DNA of 10,891 nt from CAVPRW01 sp046727435 [NCBI: bacterium] (GTDB lineage: Bacteria; Tectomicrobia; Entotheonellia; J063): contig JBKPCR010000136.1 of NCBI GenBank assembly GCA_046727435.1, forward strand, positions 1-10,891, given 5' to 3'. Positions 340 to 10,154 of the stretch are shown here, in pieces. A program made the translations under genes and the position numbers. The notes under the pieces were generated by a model that had not been told where the DNA came from, made no database searches, and saw only the letters and a program-made list of their open reading frames with translations. Every line of letters begins with the position of its first letter. The first letter of the stretch is position 1.

Positions 340-1197
340 TTAGATGTCCGCCTTCAGATCACGGAGTAGTCGCTGAAACGTCTGTTGATAAGCATCGTGG
401 TCCTTCCACTGCCGAAAATCTCCGATATGACGTTGTCTGCGGATGTCTGCCGCCCAGCCTACGGCACTGTGGATGACCGCCTCGTCGATCCGGATAGGGA
501 ACAGTATAGTCGGGTTCTCTTTGCCTTCCTTCTCGAAGGCTGTTTCGACCTCCTTTTGGACCCAACGGCTTGTGACGGAATGTTCCGACAGGATGAGGAG
601 TAATCGGTCATACACCTGAATTGATTCATCGATACGGGACCGAAATTCATCCCCGATTTTCAAGTCCTCCGGCGCAAACCAGCAGCGCACTTTGTGGGCC
701 TGGAGATCAGTATGTAAGCGTTGGGCAAGCGCCTCATCATGGCTGGAATAACTAATAAAGCAGGAATCATACTGGAACGGTTGCCCGACTAGCGACTTGC
801 TATAGGTGATCATGTCATCGGGCACGCCAGCCCCTCGGAGAAATGCTTCGGGAATATTGCCATGCGAGCGATAGAGCGTGTCGATACCCATGGTTGAAGG
901 ACCCAGATGCCGTACTGTTTCGAGTCCTCGAACCCTGCTCAGGTCAATATCCCCAAACGTGGTCCATCCAAACTCCGCCTTGGAAAGGTGCACCCCGGTG
1001 AGGTGCGCCCCGGTAAGGTTCGCATTGGAGAGGTCCGCCCCGGTAAGGTGCGCCCCGGAGAGGTCCGCCTCGGGGAGGTGCGCCCCGATGAGGTCCGCCG
1101 CGAATAGGTTCGGCCGTATCGTGGGGTTTTCGGCTCGCCATCGATTCCATACCTCCGCCCCTTGCTTCAGCCGTGCGAGATGTTCCTCGTTCGCCAT
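340..1197 (-). CDS. Pentapeptide-repeat and TIR-domain protein
   Basis: A 285-aa protein with two recognisable parts. Residues about 31-90 are pentapeptide repeats (A-D/H-L-x-x, e.g. AADLIGAHLPEADLSGAHL), which fold as a right-handed beta-helix. A linker (about 95-140) contains GIDTLYRS, a segment I associate with this architecture. Residues about 143-283 are a TIR domain (TIR_2 type): YDSCFISYSSHDEALAQRL is strand A and helix A, CWFAPEDLKIGD the BB-loop side, and RWVQKEVETA (W212, E216) carries the WxxxE glutamate that is catalytic in NAD-cleaving TIRs. Bacterial TIR proteins cleave NAD or make cyclic ADP-ribose signals, often in phage defence; that function is inferred here. GGAGGA lies 10 nt before the start. 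The pentapeptide part is written in tandem 15-bp DNA repeats (about 985-1110). It stands alone: no Thoeris, Sir2 or CBASS partner is adjacent. Confidence 0.9.
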   Translation of the reverse strand: MANEEHLARLKQGAEVWNRWRAENPTIRPNLFAADLIGAHLPEADLSGAHLTGADLSNANLTGAHLTGVHLSKAEFGWTTFGDIDLSRVRGLETVRHLGPSTMGIDTLYRSHGNIPEAFLRGAGVPDDMITYSKSLVGQPFQYDSCFISYSSHDEALAQRLHTDLQAHKVRCWFAPEDLKIGDEFRSRIDESIQVYDRLLLILSEHSVTSRWVQKEVETAFEKEGKENPTILFPIRIDEAVIHSAVGWAADIRRQRHIGDFRQWKDHDAYQQTFQRLLRDLKADI

Positions 1198-1866: not shown

Positions 1867-2128
1867 GGCCCTCCTCCCCGTCGAGGTGGTCCTTGAGGTC
1901 GCGGTAGCGGGCCTCGGCGGCCTGGTCCATGCGGTCGAGGACCTGCCCGAGCTGGCCCAGGGTGGTCTGGGTCGCGGTGTGCATGGTCGTGAGCGTCTTC
2001 TGGGTCTCGTCGTGCATGCTCTTGACCGTGCGGTTGCCCACCACGGCGACGATCAGACCCGCCACTGAAGCCGCACCGGTCAATACGCCGAACCAGGCCA
2101 GGGCGGTGGTCCAAGTCAGCTCAGGCAT
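1859..2128 (-). CDS. Membrane-anchored coiled-coil small protein
   Basis: An 89-aa protein starting MPELTW. Residues about 8-31 form one transmembrane segment (ALAWFGVLTGAASVAGLIVA). Residues about 33-82 are polar and helical, with a near-repeat (SMHDETQKTL / TMHTATQTTL) and heptad-like spacing (LGQLGQVLDRMDQAAEARYRDL), suggesting a coiled coil. I chose the start at 2128 because GAGGAGG lies 6 nt upstream. A longer frame opens at 2179 but adds only Arg-rich sequence inside the preceding gene. It overlaps the HTH gene by 8 nt (ATGCCTGA) and the winged-helix gene by 8 nt. The shape recalls small phage membrane proteins (holin- or XhlA-like) or superinfection-exclusion peptides; I do not recognise a family. 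Confidence 0.68.
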   Translation of the reverse strand: MPELTWTTALAWFGVLTGAASVAGLIVAVVGNRTVKSMHDETQKTLTTMHTATQTTLGQLGQVLDRMDQAAEARYRDLKDHLDGEEGHG

Positions 2129-2426
2129 GCGCGTCCTCCTCAGGCGCGGCAGGTGCCTTCCGGGGGCGGCCCCGAGCACGCGGCGGCGTCGTGTGCGGCC
2201 GTTTGACGGCGGGCACGGGGTCGATCTGCATCAGCTCCTCGAACGGGAGGCCCAGCCGCTCATGCAGCCGCTTGGCGGTCGCCTTGCCCACGCCGACATA
2301 GCCGTGCCAGAGGTTCCAGCTTTGCTGGCGCGAGAAGCCGGTCCGGTGCATCAGCTCTTTGATCTTGGTGATACCGTGTTGACGCAATAGCGTTTGTAGG
2401 GTCATGCCCCCGACTGTAGCGCGCAT
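2121..2426 (-). CDS. HTH (XRE/Cro-like) regulator with AT-hook-like tail
   Basis: A 101-aa protein. Residues about 9-66 form a helix-turn-helix domain of XRE/Cro type: LQTLLRQHGITKIKELMHRTGFSRQQSWNLWHG, then a second helical part KATAKRLHERLGLPFEELMQ. In this family the 'FSRQQSWNLWHG' stretch is the recognition helix. The tail holds PPRARGRPRKAP (81-92), an AT-hook-like RGRPRK core that would bind AT-rich minor groove. The start at 2426 is backed by AGGAGG 5 nt upstream; an internal ATG at 2405 lacks such a site. It is first in the leftward operon, about 40 nt downstream of the predicted start site of its promoter. The symmetric AT-rich element 2475-2512 is the natural operator for autoregulation and for control of the rightward operon. 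Confidence 0.75.
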   Translation of the reverse strand: MRATVGGMTLQTLLRQHGITKIKELMHRTGFSRQQSWNLWHGYVGVGKATAKRLHERLGLPFEELMQIDPVPAVKRPHTTPPRARGRPRKAPAAPEEDAHA

Positions 2427-2629: not shown

Positions 2630-2731
2630 ATGATACACGCAGGGAGACGCGGCAGCGCCGCGCGTGTGGAGGAGGTCCCCGGCAGGGTGCGTGAACACCC
2701 CGCCAGGGCAATGCAGGTTCGGTCTCGGTAG
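2630..2731 (+). CDS. Possible 33-aa leader peptide or small ORF
   Basis: The frame starts MIHAGRRGSAARVEEV and ends at a TAG at 2729-2731. A strong Shine-Dalgarno-like AGGAGGT lies directly before the ATG, but the spacing of about 2 nt is short. The peptide is basic with no recognised motif. It would be the first frame of the rightward transcript. It could be a genuine small protein, a leader, or chance. Confidence 0.3.
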   Translation: MIHAGRRGSAARVEEVPGRVREHPARAMQVRSR

Positions 2732-2774
2732 ACCCTATGAACCCGGCTCATAGTATGAGCCTGAAGGAGCAACG

Positions 2775-3839
2775 ATGTCAACTCGTTGGGCGCGGCGCTA
2801 GGCCGTGTCGCAATGCAAACGAAGTTTGCCAGAGCTGGTAAGGCAGCTCTGTCCTAACCCACCCAATGCTCTGTGGATAGCCCCACAGAGCGGGCATGAG
2901 AACAAGCTTGGTGGGGACACGGGCGAGGGGTGCGGGGGAGCCATACCCCCAAGATGCCCACGTCACGGACGCTGCTATGGTGAAGCTGAATTGCCGAACC
3001 TGAGACACCCTATAAGACATGACACACCCCATTAACGATGGCTAAGGGGTGTGGGAACGAAGCTAGGGGCAAATCGTACCCCTAGCCCCGCAGGCAGAGT
3101 GACGGGTCTGAAAGAGCGGGAACCTCACGGGCCTTACATCCCACGAGGCTAGTTCCAAACCCGGTACGCCGGGCTAAGGGGTCAAAAGGGCACCTACGGC
3201 AGCACAACACTTGCGACATGAGCAACGCCGGAACCGGAACCGACTCCCGCAAGGGTAGGCTGGCTGATGGCCAATGTCGGGACCGGGGCAGAGAGGCCGT
3301 AGTAGCCGGTGGAGTCACGACCACCCAGGGTCACGGGTAATGCCGTGGCAGGGCGAAGGGCCTCAGCCGACAGTGAGGGAGAGCAAGCGAGGACGGATCG
3401 CACTAGGCGGTCTTAACGAAATCGCAGATGCCTTCAACCCGAAAGGGTTTGCTGTCGGGGGATAGCCGGATGTCATGAAAGTGGCTTGTCCGGTTTGGGA
3501 AGGGCTTCAGGAAGACCGCGTGGTGTGAGCCACGTATGGCGTCCTGATTCTACTTCATACACCCCGGAACCCTCGCAGATCGATTATCACGCCGATGTCC
3601 AGGCCCAGCGCGTCCAGGCAGTCATGAAATTGATCGACCCCGGTGAGGTCCTGGCCGTCATCGACCGCCGCATCGCCGAGGAGCCTGACCCCAAGGCCCA
3701 CCCGCTCTATGGCCTGGTCCTGTTTTGCCTCGATCGCCAGGTCGCCGTCCATGGCGGCGAGTTCTGGGACACCTGGAAGCGGCGCGTCCTGGCCGCCATC
3801 GACACCTGCCTCGATGAACTCCTGACCATGGAGGACTAG
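2775..3839 (+). CDS. Small phage-type protein split by a group II intron (97 aa spliced)
   Basis: Exon 1 is predicted as 2775-2789 (MSTRW) and exon 2 as 3561-3839 (starting TPEPSQIDYHADVQAQR and ending DELLTMED). The start ATG has AAGGAG 5 nt upstream. Without splicing the frame stops at TAG 2799-2801, after eight codons. Removing 2790-3560 joins the exons in frame and gives a 97-aa acidic protein with helical segments (AVMKLIDPGEVLAVIDRRIAEE, RRVLAAIDTCLDELL). I do not recognise its family. It ends 3 bp before the annealing-protein candidate, so the two belong to one operon. If splicing failed, a truncated version could start inside the intron. Exon borders could be off by a few bases: cutting at 2784/2785 and 3558/3559 also keeps the frame. 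Confidence 0.6.
3463..3496 (+). ncRNA. Group II intron domain V
   Basis: Exactly 34 nt, the usual length. It starts TAGCCGGA with the catalytic AGC at 3464-3466. The lower stem AGCCGGA/TCCGGTT is followed by the upper stem GTCA/TGGC closing a GAAA tetraloop, with a 2-nt bulge (TT) on the 3' side as in known domains V. This pattern is very specific to group II introns. Confidence 0.9.
3498..3556 (+). ncRNA. Group II intron domain VI with candidate branch point A3552
   Basis: A stem runs from GAAG (3499-3502) and CAGGA on the 5' side, through CGCGTGG/CCACGT around a short loop, to TCCTG and CTTC (3553-3556) on the 3' side. In this fold A3552 is unpaired between a G-T and a G-C pair, as the lariat branch adenosine would be. 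It lies 8 nt before the predicted 3' end at 3560, close to the usual 6-7. Confidence 0.6.
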
Positions 3840-3842
3840 GCC

Positions 3843-4697
3843 ATGGACACGACCACGACTACCCACGACACCACCGCGGTGGCGATCGCCAACCTCACGC
3901 CCCAGGTCCCGCCGGAAGTCCTGGAGCAAGTCCTGATTGGGGGCGATCTCGCCCAGCTCACCGAGGCGCAGCGCCTGGCCTACTGCCGGGCCGTGTGCCA
4001 GAGCCTGGGCCTCAACCCCCTCAGCAAGCCCTTTGAGTACCTCACCTTGAACGGCAAGCTCCGCTTGTATGCGCTCAGGGACTGCGCCGACCAGCTGCGC
4101 CGGTTGCACGGCATCAGCATCTACATCACCAACCGCGAGCGCCTAGGCGACCTCTACCTCGTCACCGCCCGCGCCAAGGACAAGACCGGGCGCGAGGATG
4201 AGAGCACCGGGGCGGTGGCGCGGGGCACGCTCAAAGGCGATGCCCTGGCCAACGCGCTGATGACGTGCGAGACCAAGGCCAAGCGGCGCGTGACGCTGAG
4301 CCTGGCGGGCTTGGGCTGGCTGGACGAGACGGAGCTCGACACCATCCCAGGGGCACGCACGGGCGAGCTCACTGGCAACCCCGAAGCTGGGGACCTCCAC
4401 GGCACCGGCATGCTCACAGCCCCGGAGCCCACGCGCCTCACCGCCGACCAGGCCCGCGAGCTCAAACGCGTCGCCCAGGCGGCGTTTGGCTATGCCGAGG
4501 GCGAGCGGCGGCTGCGCCATGACCTCGGCTTCGAGCCGGACGAACGCCTGACGCTCCGGCACCTCTGCGCGCATGTCACGGCCGACCAGTATCAGGCGCT
4601 CATGGACAGCTACACGGCCATCCTGCGCCAGGCGGTCGAGCGCGATGTGCCCCACTTCGACCCGCCTACCGCGGTCACCACCACGGGGGAGGGCTGA
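3843..4697 (+). CDS. Putative phage-type single-strand annealing protein (RecT-like)
   Basis: A 284-aa protein. The core (about 45-165) reads LAYCRAVCQSLGLNPLSKPF, then EYLTLNGKLRLYALRDCADQL, a beta-rich segment (ISIYI...DLYLVTARAKD), and GDALANALMTCETKAKRRVT followed by LSLAGLGWLDETELDTIP. I associate the order 'LGLNPLxxPFEYLxLNGKLxLYAxxDxxDQLR ... ETKAKRRVTLSLxGLGxLDETE' with prophage and phage proteins near recombination genes, resembling RecT/Redbeta-type annealing proteins. The family call is from memory and only moderately secure. Residues about 198-275 form a helical C-terminal domain. GGAGG sits 8 nt before the ATG, inside the end of the previous gene (3-bp gap), and the next gene follows after 3 bp. 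It would promote annealing of ssDNA during replication or integration of the element; no exonuclease or SSB gene is adjacent. Confidence 0.6.
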   Translation: MDTTTTTHDTTAVAIANLTPQVPPEVLEQVLIGGDLAQLTEAQRLAYCRAVCQSLGLNPLSKPFEYLTLNGKLRLYALRDCADQLRRLHGISIYITNRERLGDLYLVTARAKDKTGREDESTGAVARGTLKGDALANALMTCETKAKRRVTLSLAGLGWLDETELDTIPGARTGELTGNPEAGDLHGTGMLTAPEPTRLTADQARELKRVAQAAFGYAEGERRLRHDLGFEPDERLTLRHLCAHVTADQYQALMDSYTAILRQAVERDVPHFDPPTAVTTTGEG

Positions 4698-4999: not shown

Positions 5000-5055
5000 C
5001 GCGCCCAATACCCTTCTGGCTTGTGATCCGGCCATTCATGCTGGAGGACACGACT

Positions 5056-6053
5056 ATGATAGGCCACGCCATCGCACTCCTCGTCACCCTTGCCTTAGGC
5101 CTCTTCGTGGCACCGCTCATGGCCCAGGCGCAGCCGGTGGGGAAGGTGCCTCGGATCGGCCTTCTGCGCCTGAGTCTGGTCTCGCCCTGCCGCACCGAGG
5201 CCTTCGCCCAAGGGCTGCGCGAGCTGGGGTACGTTGAGGGTCAAAACATCGTGATCGAGTGGCGCTGTGCGGACGGGACGGTGGAGCGGCAGCGGGCGCT
5301 GGCGGTCGAGCTGGTCCAGCTCCCCGTGGACGTTTTCGTGGCGGCGTCTGTCGACGGCCCCCTGGCGGCCATGCAGGCGACACGCACGATCCCCATCGTC
5401 TTTGTGTCGGTTCCCGAGCCGGTGGCCACGGGGCTGGTCACCAGTCTGGCGCAGCCGGGCGGGAACGTCACCGGCGGGCGAAGCAGGTGGGCCTGGAATT
5501 CCACGCGAAACGTCTCCAACTGCTCCTGGAGGCCGTGCCCGGCGTGACCCGCGTCGCCGCGCTCCAGCAGGGTGCGATGACCAGAGCCGTGCCCGCGCGG
5601 GCACACATCCTGCGCGCCGCGGAGGAGGCTGCCCGGCGTCTGGGCGTCCACCTGCAGTACACGGAGGTCGACGCGCCCGACGAGCTAGAAGGCGCTTTCG
5701 CGGCGATGAAACGTGAGGGGGCCGGGGCACTCTTGATGTTTTTTTCGCCGTTCTTCACCACGCACCGCCAGCGGCTCATGGAGCTGGTGGCCCAGCACCG
5801 GTTGCCGGGCATCTTCGAATCCAGACCGTACGTGGAGGCGGGCGGCCTCATGTCCTATAACGCGAACAATGCCGCCCTCTTTCGGCGCGCCGCCACCTAC
5901 GTGGACAAGATCCTGAAGGGGGCCAAGCCAGCCGACTTGCCGGTGGAACAGCCCACCACGTTCGAGCTGGTCATCAACCTCAAGACCGCCGAGGCGCTGG
6001 GCCTGACCATTCCTCCACCCCTCCTCTTCCAGGCGACCGAGATCATCCGGTAA
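5056..6053 (+). pseudogene. ABC transporter substrate-binding protein (PF04392-like), frameshifted
   Basis: The N-terminal frame (5056-5547) starts MIGHAIALLVTLALGLFVAP, a Sec signal peptide ending near MAQAQP, and GGAGG lies 8 nt before the ATG. It continues GKVPRIGLLRL, FAQGLRELGYVEGQNIVIEW, VDVFVAAS, IPIVFVSVPEPVATGLVTSL and AQPGGNVTG, the classic first lobe of ABC_sub_bind proteins. Homology then jumps to the next frame (KQVGLEFHAKRLQLLLEAVP near 5481) and runs through the second lobe to LGLTIPPPLLFQATEIIR. The span of 998 nt is one base short of 333 codons, the usual family length, so a single-base loss near 5475-5485 explains it. The family takes up small organic solutes; the substrate here is unknown. 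No permease or ATPase gene follows. The break is a real decay event or a sequence error. Confidence 0.88.
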
Positions 6054-8419: not shown

Positions 8420-8716
8420 TCAGTCCACGATCCACACGCCCTCGACCGCCGTCATGCGGCTCACCGACCCCGTCCTGACGCTGGCCCCGTGCGCGGTCAG
8501 CCAGGCGAGCACCTGGTCCTCGGCCAGCACCGGCTCCCCGTAGCTCGCACACCAACGCGCATACGCCAAGAAGAGTAGATCAATAGGCGCGGCCGCCTGA
8601 GCGTCCCACTCCAACCGACTGGCCGCACAGGTCTCCCAGCCGGCCGCGGGGTCCGGTGGTGGCGGCAGCGCGACGCGCGTCTGGGCCTCGGCCAACTCCC
8701 GCAGGGCCCACACCAC
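8420..8716 (-). pseudogene. Possible P4-type primase C-terminal fragment
   Basis: About 98 residues from a GTG at 8716: MVWALRELAEAQTRVALPPP, then IDLLFLAYARWCASYGEPVL, AEDQVLAWLTAHGASVRTGS and GVWIVD. The '..LFxAYxxWCxxxGEPxLxxxxxxxxLxxxG....G.W' pattern is what I know from the C-terminal domain of phage/plasmid primase-helicases, which are several hundred residues longer. Upstream the frame is closed by a TAA inside the 28-bp palindrome, and no start with a ribosome site is visible, so I read it as a truncated remnant. It could instead be a small intact protein. Confidence 0.4.
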
Positions 8717-8744
8717 CTGTTACCGCGGGGTCCCGCGGTAACAG
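8717..8744. repeat. Perfect 28-bp palindrome
   Basis: Arms CTGTTACCGCGGG and CCCGCGGTAACAG are exact reverse complements around a 2-bp GT. It lies immediately upstream of the primase-like fragment and closes that frame with a TAA. It may be an operator, a very stable hairpin or a recombination scar. Confidence 0.7.
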
Positions 8745-9251
8745 CCGCAGGGCTCGAATCAGACGAAATCCCTGAAGGGTCAGATTAGCGTGAAGCGTGG
8801 GGCCTCAGCTCGCAGGTGCCCGTTACTCATCTCAACTCATCTCCATTGATGAATACCTGTATCTCTTCTTCTCTGGTTTCCATCTAAACTATTGTATTGA
8901 CAAGTCTTTCCATCTGCTCTAGGCTTGCGCCTATTCACCTTTATATTGCTGCATCCTGTGCTGTCCTTGCTCAGGAGCATACTGCTGATGTTTGCAACAT
9001 CTCCATTGCCGCCTCGCCTCTCAAGCAGTCTTCCGGCGTCTGCCCGCTTTTTAGCGCGGCCGCAACTCCTGACCCGCTATGCTCCCCTCCCGTGGGAGGG
9101 ACATCCCTCGGTCTAGCTCAACATCGGAACATCCGTATCGCACCAGTCGCACCTCTCCTATGTGGATAGGCAGGCGCGTTGGCTTGACTGCCAAACGGTC
9201 GCCCCATTTGCACGGTGGCTCCCATCACTCTCGCCCGTGGAGGATGAACAC
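8745..9251. other. Non-coding region upstream of the surface protein
   Basis: This stretch is pyrimidine-rich and lower in GC than its neighbours (about 8820-9010). I see no protein-like frame. It holds a tandem ACTCATCTCA/ACTCATCTCC (about 8825-8844), the 11-bp direct repeat CATCTCCATTG (8838 and 8998) and one promoter-like pair at 8897-8925. It is probably a long leader or regulatory region. Confidence 0.45.
8897..8925 (+). promoter_or_regulatory. Candidate sigma70 promoter
   Basis: Perfect -35 TTGACA (8897-8902), 17-bp spacer and a weak -10 TAGGCT (8920-8925). If active, it would drive the surface protein with a leader of more than 300 nt. Confidence 0.4.
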
Positions 9252-10154
9252 ATGGACAGCCTGGACAACTTGCGTGAACGAGTTGAGGCGTTGGAACAGC
9301 ATAATCGCACCGTTGAACGGCGACTCCGCTGGTGGCGTGGCATGGCTGGAGGCCTGCTGGTGCTCGGCCTGTTGAGCTGGGCGTTGCCGTCGGGCAAAGC
9401 GGCGGATGCCCCAGGAAGAGGGATGGCCGAACGCATGGCCACCCTGGAAAAGAAGCTCGCCGCGATGGACGTTGATGATGCGGCCAATGAAGTGGTCATT
9501 AGTGGAGCAAACCTGCGCATCGTTAACGGACTGGGGACCACGAACACCACCAATGGGCTGGGCAATCTGATCGTGGGCTATAACGAAGATCGCGGCGGCG
9601 GCACAGACACCCGCATCGGCTCGCACAACATGGTGGTGGGAAGAGAGCACAATTTCTCCAGCTTTGGAGGCTTGGTGGTTGGCTTGCGTAACGAGATCAG
9701 TGGGGAGTTTGCCTCGGTCAGCGGGGGAGCTGGGAACACGGCGAGCGGTGGTGCCGCCTCGGTCAGCGGGGGAAACTCGAACACGGCGAGCGGTGGTAAC
9801 TCCTCGGTCAGCGGCGGGACCATCAATACGGCCAGCGGGCTTCGCGCCGTCTGGGTCGGCGGGGGGATCGGCAACACGGCTAGCGGTAATGTCTCCTCGC
9901 TCTGCGGGGGAAACTCGAACACAGCTACGGGGTTCTCATCGTCGGTCTGTGGGGGAAACGCGAACACAGCTAGCGGAGCTGCGTCTTCAGTGACCGGAGG
10001 GAGCTTCAACACGGCCAGCGGAGAGTCAGCCTCGGTCAGCGGCGGTGAGAGTAATACGGCTAGCGGCTTCCGCTCCTCGGTCAGCGGCGGACGCAACCGA
10101 ACAGCCCCAGCACAGTTCAACTGGGCGGCCGGGGCCTTGTTCTCCGACAACTAG
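9252..10154 (+). CDS. Membrane-anchored SVSGG/NTASG-repeat surface protein
   Basis: A 300-aa protein. Residues 1-27 are a short coiled coil (MDSLDNLRERVEALEQHNRT). About 27-47 is an N-terminal membrane segment (WWRGMAGGLLVLGLLSWALP), followed by a second coiled coil (about 57-72). About 80-150 is a conserved domain (NEVVISGANLRIVNGLG, GNLIVGYNE, SHNMVVGREHNFSSFGGLVVG). About 152-287 holds nine 15-residue repeats of type 'xxSSVSGGxxNTASG', resembling the stacked head repeats of YadA-like trimeric adhesins, so a trimeric beta-roll fibre is likely. Two repeats have Cys in place of the second Ser (CGG, 218 and 233). It ends [10 protein letters not shown], a capping sequence I associate with this family. 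The start at 9252 has GGAGG 9 nt upstream. It overlaps the end of the convergent phosphatase gene by 38 nt. Confidence 0.8.
   Translation: MDSLDNLRERVEALEQHNRTVERRLRWWRGMAGGLLVLGLLSWALPSGKAADAPGRGMAERMATLEKKLAAMDVDDAANEVVISGANLRIVNGLGTTNTTNGLGNLIVGYNEDRGGGTDTRIGSHNMVVGREHNFSSFGGLVVGLRNEISGEFASVSGGAGNTASGGAASVSGGNSNTASGGNSSVSGGTINTASGLRAVWVGGGIGNTASGNVSSLCGGNSNTATGFSSSVCGGNANTASGAASSVTGGSFNTASGESASVSGGESNTASGFRSSVSGGRNRTAPAQFNWAAGALFSDN

What the first reader, a model, noticed from the sequence alone, without database searches (positions are those of the whole stretch)
2775..3839. ORF-less group II intron splits a gene after codon 5
A 34-nt domain V with AGC triad and GAAA loop, a domain VI with an unpaired A3552, and a 7-bp EBS1-IBS1 match (3032-3038 with 2783-2789) define an intron of about 771 nt. 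Removing it joins ATG TCA ACT CGT TGG to ACC CCG in frame; unspliced, the gene stops after eight codons. Bacterial group II introns usually sit outside genes or after terminators, so insertion at the start of a gene in a recombination operon makes expression depend on splicing, with a maturase supplied in trans. The split could act as a switch. The first bases GCGCG, not GUGYG, are also unusual.
Basis: partly seen in the sequence, partly recalled or inferred. Interest (0 to 1): 0.78.

Follow-up and report, generated by a model that had tools for sequence, protein, structure and literature searches.

The report
Self-splicing intron inside a gene start
A protein-less, probably self-removing RNA element sits just after the start codon of a small gene in front of a DNA-repair-type gene, so that gene can probably be read only after the element cuts itself out; it belongs to a known kind of element, in an unusual place.

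Summary
A covariance model of domains V-VI, built from 11 relatives without the window, hits window 3461-3558 at 61.7 bits (E 6.5e-12; next site 11.3 bits) and ends at 3558, not 3560. In seven relatives whose 3' ends are fixed by exon joins or several copies, the end lies 6 (six) or 7 (one) nt after the branch A, and the gamma base in J2/3 pairs with the last base in 7 of 7: G with C five times, A with U twice. The window has gamma = A3290, which calls for U3558. The best intron is 2788-3558 (771 nt). It still joins in frame, as ATG TCA ACT CGT TAC ACC CCG. No reverse transcriptase was found in the window. Exon 2 looks coding up to the junction. No homologue of the 97-aa protein was found, so no intron-less allele was seen. 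The next gene is modelled as Rad52-like. New member of a known kind: an ORF-less bacterial group II intron within a gene. Splicing itself is inferred; a switch is possible but untested.

The parts
2763..2787 (+). Shine-Dalgarno (GAAGGAG, 2763-2769), start codon ATG 2775 and exon 1 (2775-2787, 13 nt)
   Evidence: sequence; in-frame join
2775..2779 (+). candidate IBS2 (AUGUC), overlapping the start codon; candidate EBS2 GACAU at 3016-3020
   Evidence: sequence; five base pairs, weak on its own
2783..2787 (+). IBS1 (UCGUU), pairs with EBS1 AACGA 3034-3038; two further G-U pairs possible with 2788-2789
   Evidence: sequence
2788..3558 (+).
2789..2809 (+). 5'-terminal hairpin starting at intron nt 2, as in 3 of 8 relatives folded
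3016..3020 (+). candidate EBS2 (GACAU)
   Evidence: sequence
3034..3038 (+). EBS1 (AACGA), in the apical part of a domain I hairpin
   Evidence: sequence; hairpin in the fold
3290..3292 (+). J2/3 (AGA); gamma = A3290, would pair with gamma' U3558
3293..3360 (+). domain III (approximate ends) with the family motifs CGTAGTAG and GGCGAAGG
3366..3458 (+). domain IV (approximate ends), about 93 nt, closed by CCGACAG/CUGUCGG, without an RT gene
3464..3495 (+). domain V: AGC triad, GAAA loop; reads UU at the bulge, where 16 of 17 relatives have A first
3499..3558 (+). domain VI with branch A3552, ending at U3558
3559..3839 (+). exon 2 of the split gene (97 codons with exon 1, stop TAG 3837-3839)
3843..4697 (+). 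next gene, 284 aa, predicted Rad52-like single-strand annealing protein

Best explanation
Window 2788-3558 is a group II intron without a protein gene of its own. It interrupts a 97-codon gene after 13 coding bases. In the pre-mRNA, domain I pairs with the first codons (IBS1 and probably IBS2) and domain V forms the catalytic centre. A3552 attacks the junction 2787/2788, and exon 2 is then joined at 3559, with the last intron base U3558 held by A3290. Splicing restores one frame from ATG 2775 to the stop at 3839, three bases before the start codon of the next gene, which looks like a Rad52-type annealing protein. A maturase from a related intron elsewhere in the cell probably helps. Shown: intron family, domains V-VI, branch site, gamma-gamma' match, in-frame join, coding character of exon 2. 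Inferred: that it splices in the cell, the trans maturase, and the effect on the next gene.
For: A model of domains V-VI from 11 relatives, window left out, scores the window at 61.7 bits and stops at 3558. Its helices covary in the relatives: 22 of 30 pairs change on both sides, 0 of 500 shuffles reach this. The 3' ends of relatives were fixed by exon joins that read as one protein for six (Vibrio lentus L102, Leptolyngbya L101, Spirosoma L112, Rhizobium L113, Herpetosiphon L008, virus contig L115/L119) and by several copies for one (Shinella). In 7 of 7 the gamma base and last base form a Watson-Crick pair (5 G-C, 2 A-U); the aligned branch A lies 6 nt (6 of 7) or 7 nt (1 of 7) before the end. 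The window has A3290 and U3558 at 6 nt. Domain III motifs are shared. The join is in frame. The first 21 codons of exon 2 score as coding: 6.4 bits, reached by 8 of 1690 overlapping non-coding 63-mers, and the score falls to -16.4 inside the intron. Fold z -5.56.
Against: No intron-less homologue of the gene was found, so the join rests on frame and structure. No Rfam D1-D4 hit. The 5' end is not GUGYG, and the 5' hairpin register varies among relatives. Domain V has U where 16 of 17 relatives have A at the bulge, which may lower activity. EBS-IBS pairings are short. In the coding test the reverse strand scores as well as the forward one (6.6). No IEP-bearing partner could be sought in the host.
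Confidence: 0.78

Rival explanations
1. The ends are as the first reader gave them, 2790-3560.
For: In frame; a seven-pair EBS1-IBS1 with two G-U pairs; intron ends in AC, also a legal AY end (sequence).
Against: The 3' end would lie 8 nt after the branch A, seen in 0 of 7 relatives with fixed ends; gamma A would face C; the relatives' model ends at 3558.
Confidence: 0.1
2. It is a decayed intron that no longer splices; the small gene is dead and the downstream gene is translated on its own or not at all.
For: Rfam score just under the cut-off; changed base at the domain V bulge; non-consensus 5' end; no RT in the window.
Against: The RNA folds well, gamma-gamma' and branch spacing are kept, and exon 2 keeps an open, coding-like frame up to the junction, which decay would erase unless recent.
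Confidence: 0.15
3. The intron lies in a leader; the real protein starts at ATG 3624 and splicing does not touch its reading frame.
For: First in-frame start codon of exon 2 is ATG 3624 (sequence); no homologue fixes the N-terminus.
Against: Codons 3561-3623 score as coding in the same frame, no good Shine-Dalgarno is seen before 3624, and a good one precedes ATG 2775 in the frame that splicing restores (sequence).
Confidence: 0.07
4. Splicing is a regulated switch for the gene pair, not just a tolerated insertion.
For: Start codon, candidate IBS2, IBS1 and 5' splice site lie within 13 nt, so ribosome and intron contend for one stretch; unspliced RNA stops after eight codons and would uncouple the next gene (sequence).
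Against: No riboswitch or other sensor family matched in the window; relatives with resolved joins sit well inside genes such as transposases, as expected of a selfish element.
Confidence: 0.12

Closest known systems
IEP-bearing group II introns on plasmids of Vibrio lentus (in an annotated JAB-domain gene, radC by its motif as I recall it), Leptolyngbya boryana, Herpetosiphon aurantiacus and Shinella
   Same: Domain V-VI sequence and covarying structure, branch spacing, J2/3 and domain III motifs; the first three join coding exons in frame
   Different: They carry a reverse transcriptase/maturase in domain IV; the window intron has about 93 nt there and no RT. Their domain V bulge keeps A. 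The Shinella copies lie outside annotated genes.
ORF-less TeI3 introns of Thermosynechococcus elongatus (PMC2882425, passages read)
   Same: Bacterial ORF-less introns spliced and moved by the protein of a related intron
   Different: There the ORF-bearing partner is in the same genome; here it could not be sought. The paper says only a small number of those introns are within genes.
[quoted passage not shown]
   Same: Introns without IEP; 6 of that paper's 20 curated phage introns are ORF-less, and 14 of 20 lie in coding regions with an alignable intron-less homologue
   Different: Whether the window is viral is unknown; no intron-less homologue found here.

Membership tests
group II intron | domain V: hairpin of about 34 nt, AGC/CGC triad, tetraloop | tested here: met
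   RF00029 37.1 bits, below gathering score 40 but E 1.9e-4; family model 61.7 bits
group II intron | domain VI with bulged A near the 3' end | tested here: met
   A3552, 6 nt before 3558
group II intron | 3' end AY and gamma-gamma' pair | tested here: met
   AU at 3557-3558, A3290-U3558
group II intron | 5' consensus GUGYG (a consensus, not strict) | tested here: not met
   GGGCG at 2788 (or GCGCG at 2790); a Rhodococcus relative may begin GAGCG (end not proven)
group II intron | EBS1-IBS1 and EBS2-IBS2 pairing | tested here: inconclusive
   five Watson-Crick pairs each, from sequence; short enough to arise by chance
group II intron | domains I-IV by Rfam D1-D4 models | tested here: inconclusive
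   no match up to E 10; at the gathering cut-off 3 of the 12 loci have a D1-D4 match and 9 have none, Vibrio, Herpetosiphon and Leptolyngbya among the latter
group II intron | splicing | not testable with these tools
   needs RNA
lineage of the Vibrio / Leptolyngbya / Shinella introns | shared domain V-VI model and domain III motif | tested here: met
   the window was not in the model
ORF-less intron helped by a related maturase | related IEP in the same genome | not testable with these tools
   no genome held; none in the window
Rad52-like annealing protein (gene 3843-4697) | Rad52 fold | tested here: inconclusive
   Foldseek rows 1-21 are RAD52 or Mgm101, E 6.6e-4 to 1.1e-2, TM-scores low; best Z 8.9, rmsd 5.7, 96 aligned, against 7.7 for the best dsRNA-binding domain; Pfam Rad52_Rad22 in 1 of 7 members at E 0.0095

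The most novel reading that the evidence does not exclude
The intron makes translation start and splicing mutually exclusive. The start codon and the next two bases (AUGUC) are the candidate IBS2, IBS1 follows three bases later, and the 5' splice site is 13 nt from the A of AUG, so a starting ribosome covers the whole stretch that domain I must hold. Before splicing a ribosome stops at intron nt 12-14. Such an arrangement would tie output of a recombination gene pair to the balance of ribosomes and maturase.
Probability: 0.12. Interest if true: 0.65.

Novelty: new member of a known kind. Interest (0 to 1): 0.36.

Why it matters
[quoted passage not shown] One whose exon binding sites coincide with the start region of a gene gives a clean test of whether ribosomes and group II splicing compete, and whether such introns can be kept as switches. 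The boundary correction also shows that a gamma-gamma' and branch-spacing check against relatives can settle splice sites that reading frame alone leaves open.

Tried and rejected
Homologues of the 97-aa protein: none in Pfam or NCBIfam, only E 0.061 in PHROGs, none in viral contigs or phages. The one genome-contig hit, L001, is a 19-residue match in another frame of a different gene, taken as chance. None in 86 loci around genes like the downstream one, best E 0.37. None in 398 genomes drawn from one phylum, with no positive control. L098 shares only the motif EFWDTWK and looks unrelated.

Intron by plain DNA search: no plasmid match for 2700-3900. In 398 genomes two short matches, L005/L006, lie in other genes with no domain V found at the Rfam cut-off; taken as chance. 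Domain V pattern and first domain III pattern: none in viral contigs. A looser domain III pattern hit three viral contigs: L114 and L115 are introns of the family; L116 showed no domain V to the search and is taken as chance. The same kind of pattern hit 1 of 398 genomes; its domain V was not found by my text search, and it is not used. Model R1 in 398 genomes: 5 of 398 at E up to 1e-8, 10 candidates per genome scored.

Rows left out. Of the 12 loci, five went into model R1 (L008, L099, L100, L101, L102) and seven did not (L007, L009, L103-L107), because their domain VI differs or does not align well. Rhodococcus L100, Streptomyces L099, S. numidicum L111 and virus L114 are in the model, but I count none of them among the seven with fixed ends: L100 gives an incoherent join, L099 was not convincing, and the joins of L111 and L114 were not tested. 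L099, L100 and L114 would also pair G with C (L100 at 7 nt).

Names recalled or judged by eye, not from a call: radC for L102 (annotated JAB domain), IS256 for L113, DUF2924-like for L115, and gamma as the base before GA in J2/3.

Other: structure of exon 2 alone, mean pLDDT 55.9, not used. PDB by sequence for the next gene: none. The first coding-score run had one training gene out of frame; one search repeats it correctly.

Full report
What is there. The window holds a domain V hairpin with an AGC triad and a GAAA loop at 3464-3495, found by Rfam RF00029 at 37.1 bits, E 1.9e-4, a little under the family's cut-off of 40; no Rfam domain I-IV model matched up to E 10. Upstream, a clear Shine-Dalgarno and ATG 2775 open a frame that stops after eight codons; downstream, a long open frame runs to TAG 3839, three bases before the ATG of the next gene. 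The RNA between folds better than 20 of 20 shuffles, z -5.56.

Relatives. Domain V matched introns on plasmids of Herpetosiphon, Nostoc and Deinococcus, and from the Herpetosiphon reverse transcriptase and then the Vibrio domain V-VI further introns were collected. Among the 12 loci compared the closest by domains V-VI is in Vibrio lentus, where the distal stem of domain VI is changed on both strands and still pairs. Most relatives share the domain III motifs CGTAGTAG and GGCGAAGG.

A test that leaves the window out. Eleven relatives were aligned over domains V-VI; 22 of 30 pairs show changes on both sides, and none of 500 shuffles does as well. The model built from them finds the window at 61.7 bits, E 6.5e-12, with the next site at 11.3 bits. 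Over 81 sources, the window and 80 viral loci, only the window scores E below 1. The match ends at 3558.

Where the 3' end is. Exon joins read as one protein in Vibrio (NHPS/GDATPS, the radC motif as I recall it), a Leptolyngbya reverse transcriptase gene, a Spirosoma IS3-type integrase, a Rhizobium transposase-like frame and a Herpetosiphon frame, and in a virus contig. Several copies fix the Shinella 3' end. In these seven the aligned branch A lies 6 nt (six) or 7 nt (one, L119) before the end. The first base of J2/3, taken as gamma from general knowledge of group II introns, is G in five and A in two (Leptolyngbya and the virus contig); the last base is C in those five and U in those two. 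One of the seven, Rhizobium, ends TC rather than AY.

Where the 5' end is. Here the evidence is weaker. Eight relatives were folded over their first 28 nt: a hairpin starts at nt 2 in Leptolyngbya, Spirosoma and Rhodococcus, at nt 1 in Vibrio, Streptomyces and Herpetosiphon (the last two with nt 2 unpaired), at nt 3 in Rhizobium, and is unclear in Shinella. In Leptolyngbya and Rhodococcus nt 2 pairs as U-A and A-U; the window fits as G-C if it starts at 2788. The frame then decides: 2787 joined to 3559 is open for 97 codons, while 2789 joined to 3559 is not. I give about 0.9 for the 3' end and 0.8 for the 5' end.

Is the gene real? The first 21 codons of exon 2 have codon usage like the window's other genes (6.4 bits; 8 of 1690 overlapping non-coding 63-mers reach it), the other two forward frames score -9.4 and -12.5, and the score drops to -16.4 inside the intron; the reverse strand scores 6.6, so this test does not tell the strand. 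Over the whole exon 2 the forward frames score 43.0, -54.8 and -60.8. No homologue was found anywhere searched, so the N-terminus and function of the protein stay open. Its model (mean pLDDT 79.9) is most like RAD52 and Mgm101 (Foldseek best E 6.6e-4 with low TM-scores; best Z 8.9, rmsd 5.7, 96 aligned). 'Recombination operon' is therefore a fair reading, though sequence libraries alone do not give it.

How it most likely works. The intron folds, selects the first codons of the gene by base pairing, and removes itself; the joined message carries one frame up to the annealing gene. The lack of a domain IV ORF means a maturase in trans or unaided splicing. ORF-less bacterial introns are called rare, nearly always with related IEPs in the genome (PMC4424553, passages); help in trans was shown in Thermosynechococcus (PMC2882425, passages); ORF-less members occur in phages (PMC12350094, parts 1-3 of 4). 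Against full activity: domain V has U where 16 of 17 relatives (11 of 11, 5 of 6) have A at the bulge, and the 5' end is off consensus.

Verdict. Real feature, ordinary kind, unusual place. The most interesting open point is the overlap of start codon, exon binding sites and splice site.

Noticed in passing
340-1197 (-): Protein with pentapeptide repeats and a C-terminal TIR domain (TIR_2 E 3.9e-25), a possible defence effector.
   Followed up: no
5023-6053 (+): ABC-type substrate-binding protein (by eye) that seems split over two frames near 5480.
   Followed up: no
8713-8773: Strong GC-rich hairpin resembling Rfam P36 below its cut-off (23.2 bits, cut-off 36), maybe a REP-like repeat.
   Followed up: no
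9252-10154 (+): Protein with many SVSGG-x-x-NTASG repeats.
   Followed up: no
2121-2426 (-): Cro/C1-type HTH protein divergent from the split gene, as in a phage or mobile-element control region.
   Followed up: no
L007 3771-4076: Deinococcus plasmid: group II intron domains III-VI with no annotated RT between two transposase ORFs, probably a truncated relative.
   Followed up: partly
L108 834-5369: Two identical group II introns head to tail on a Shinella plasmid.
   Followed up: partly
   Followed up: partly
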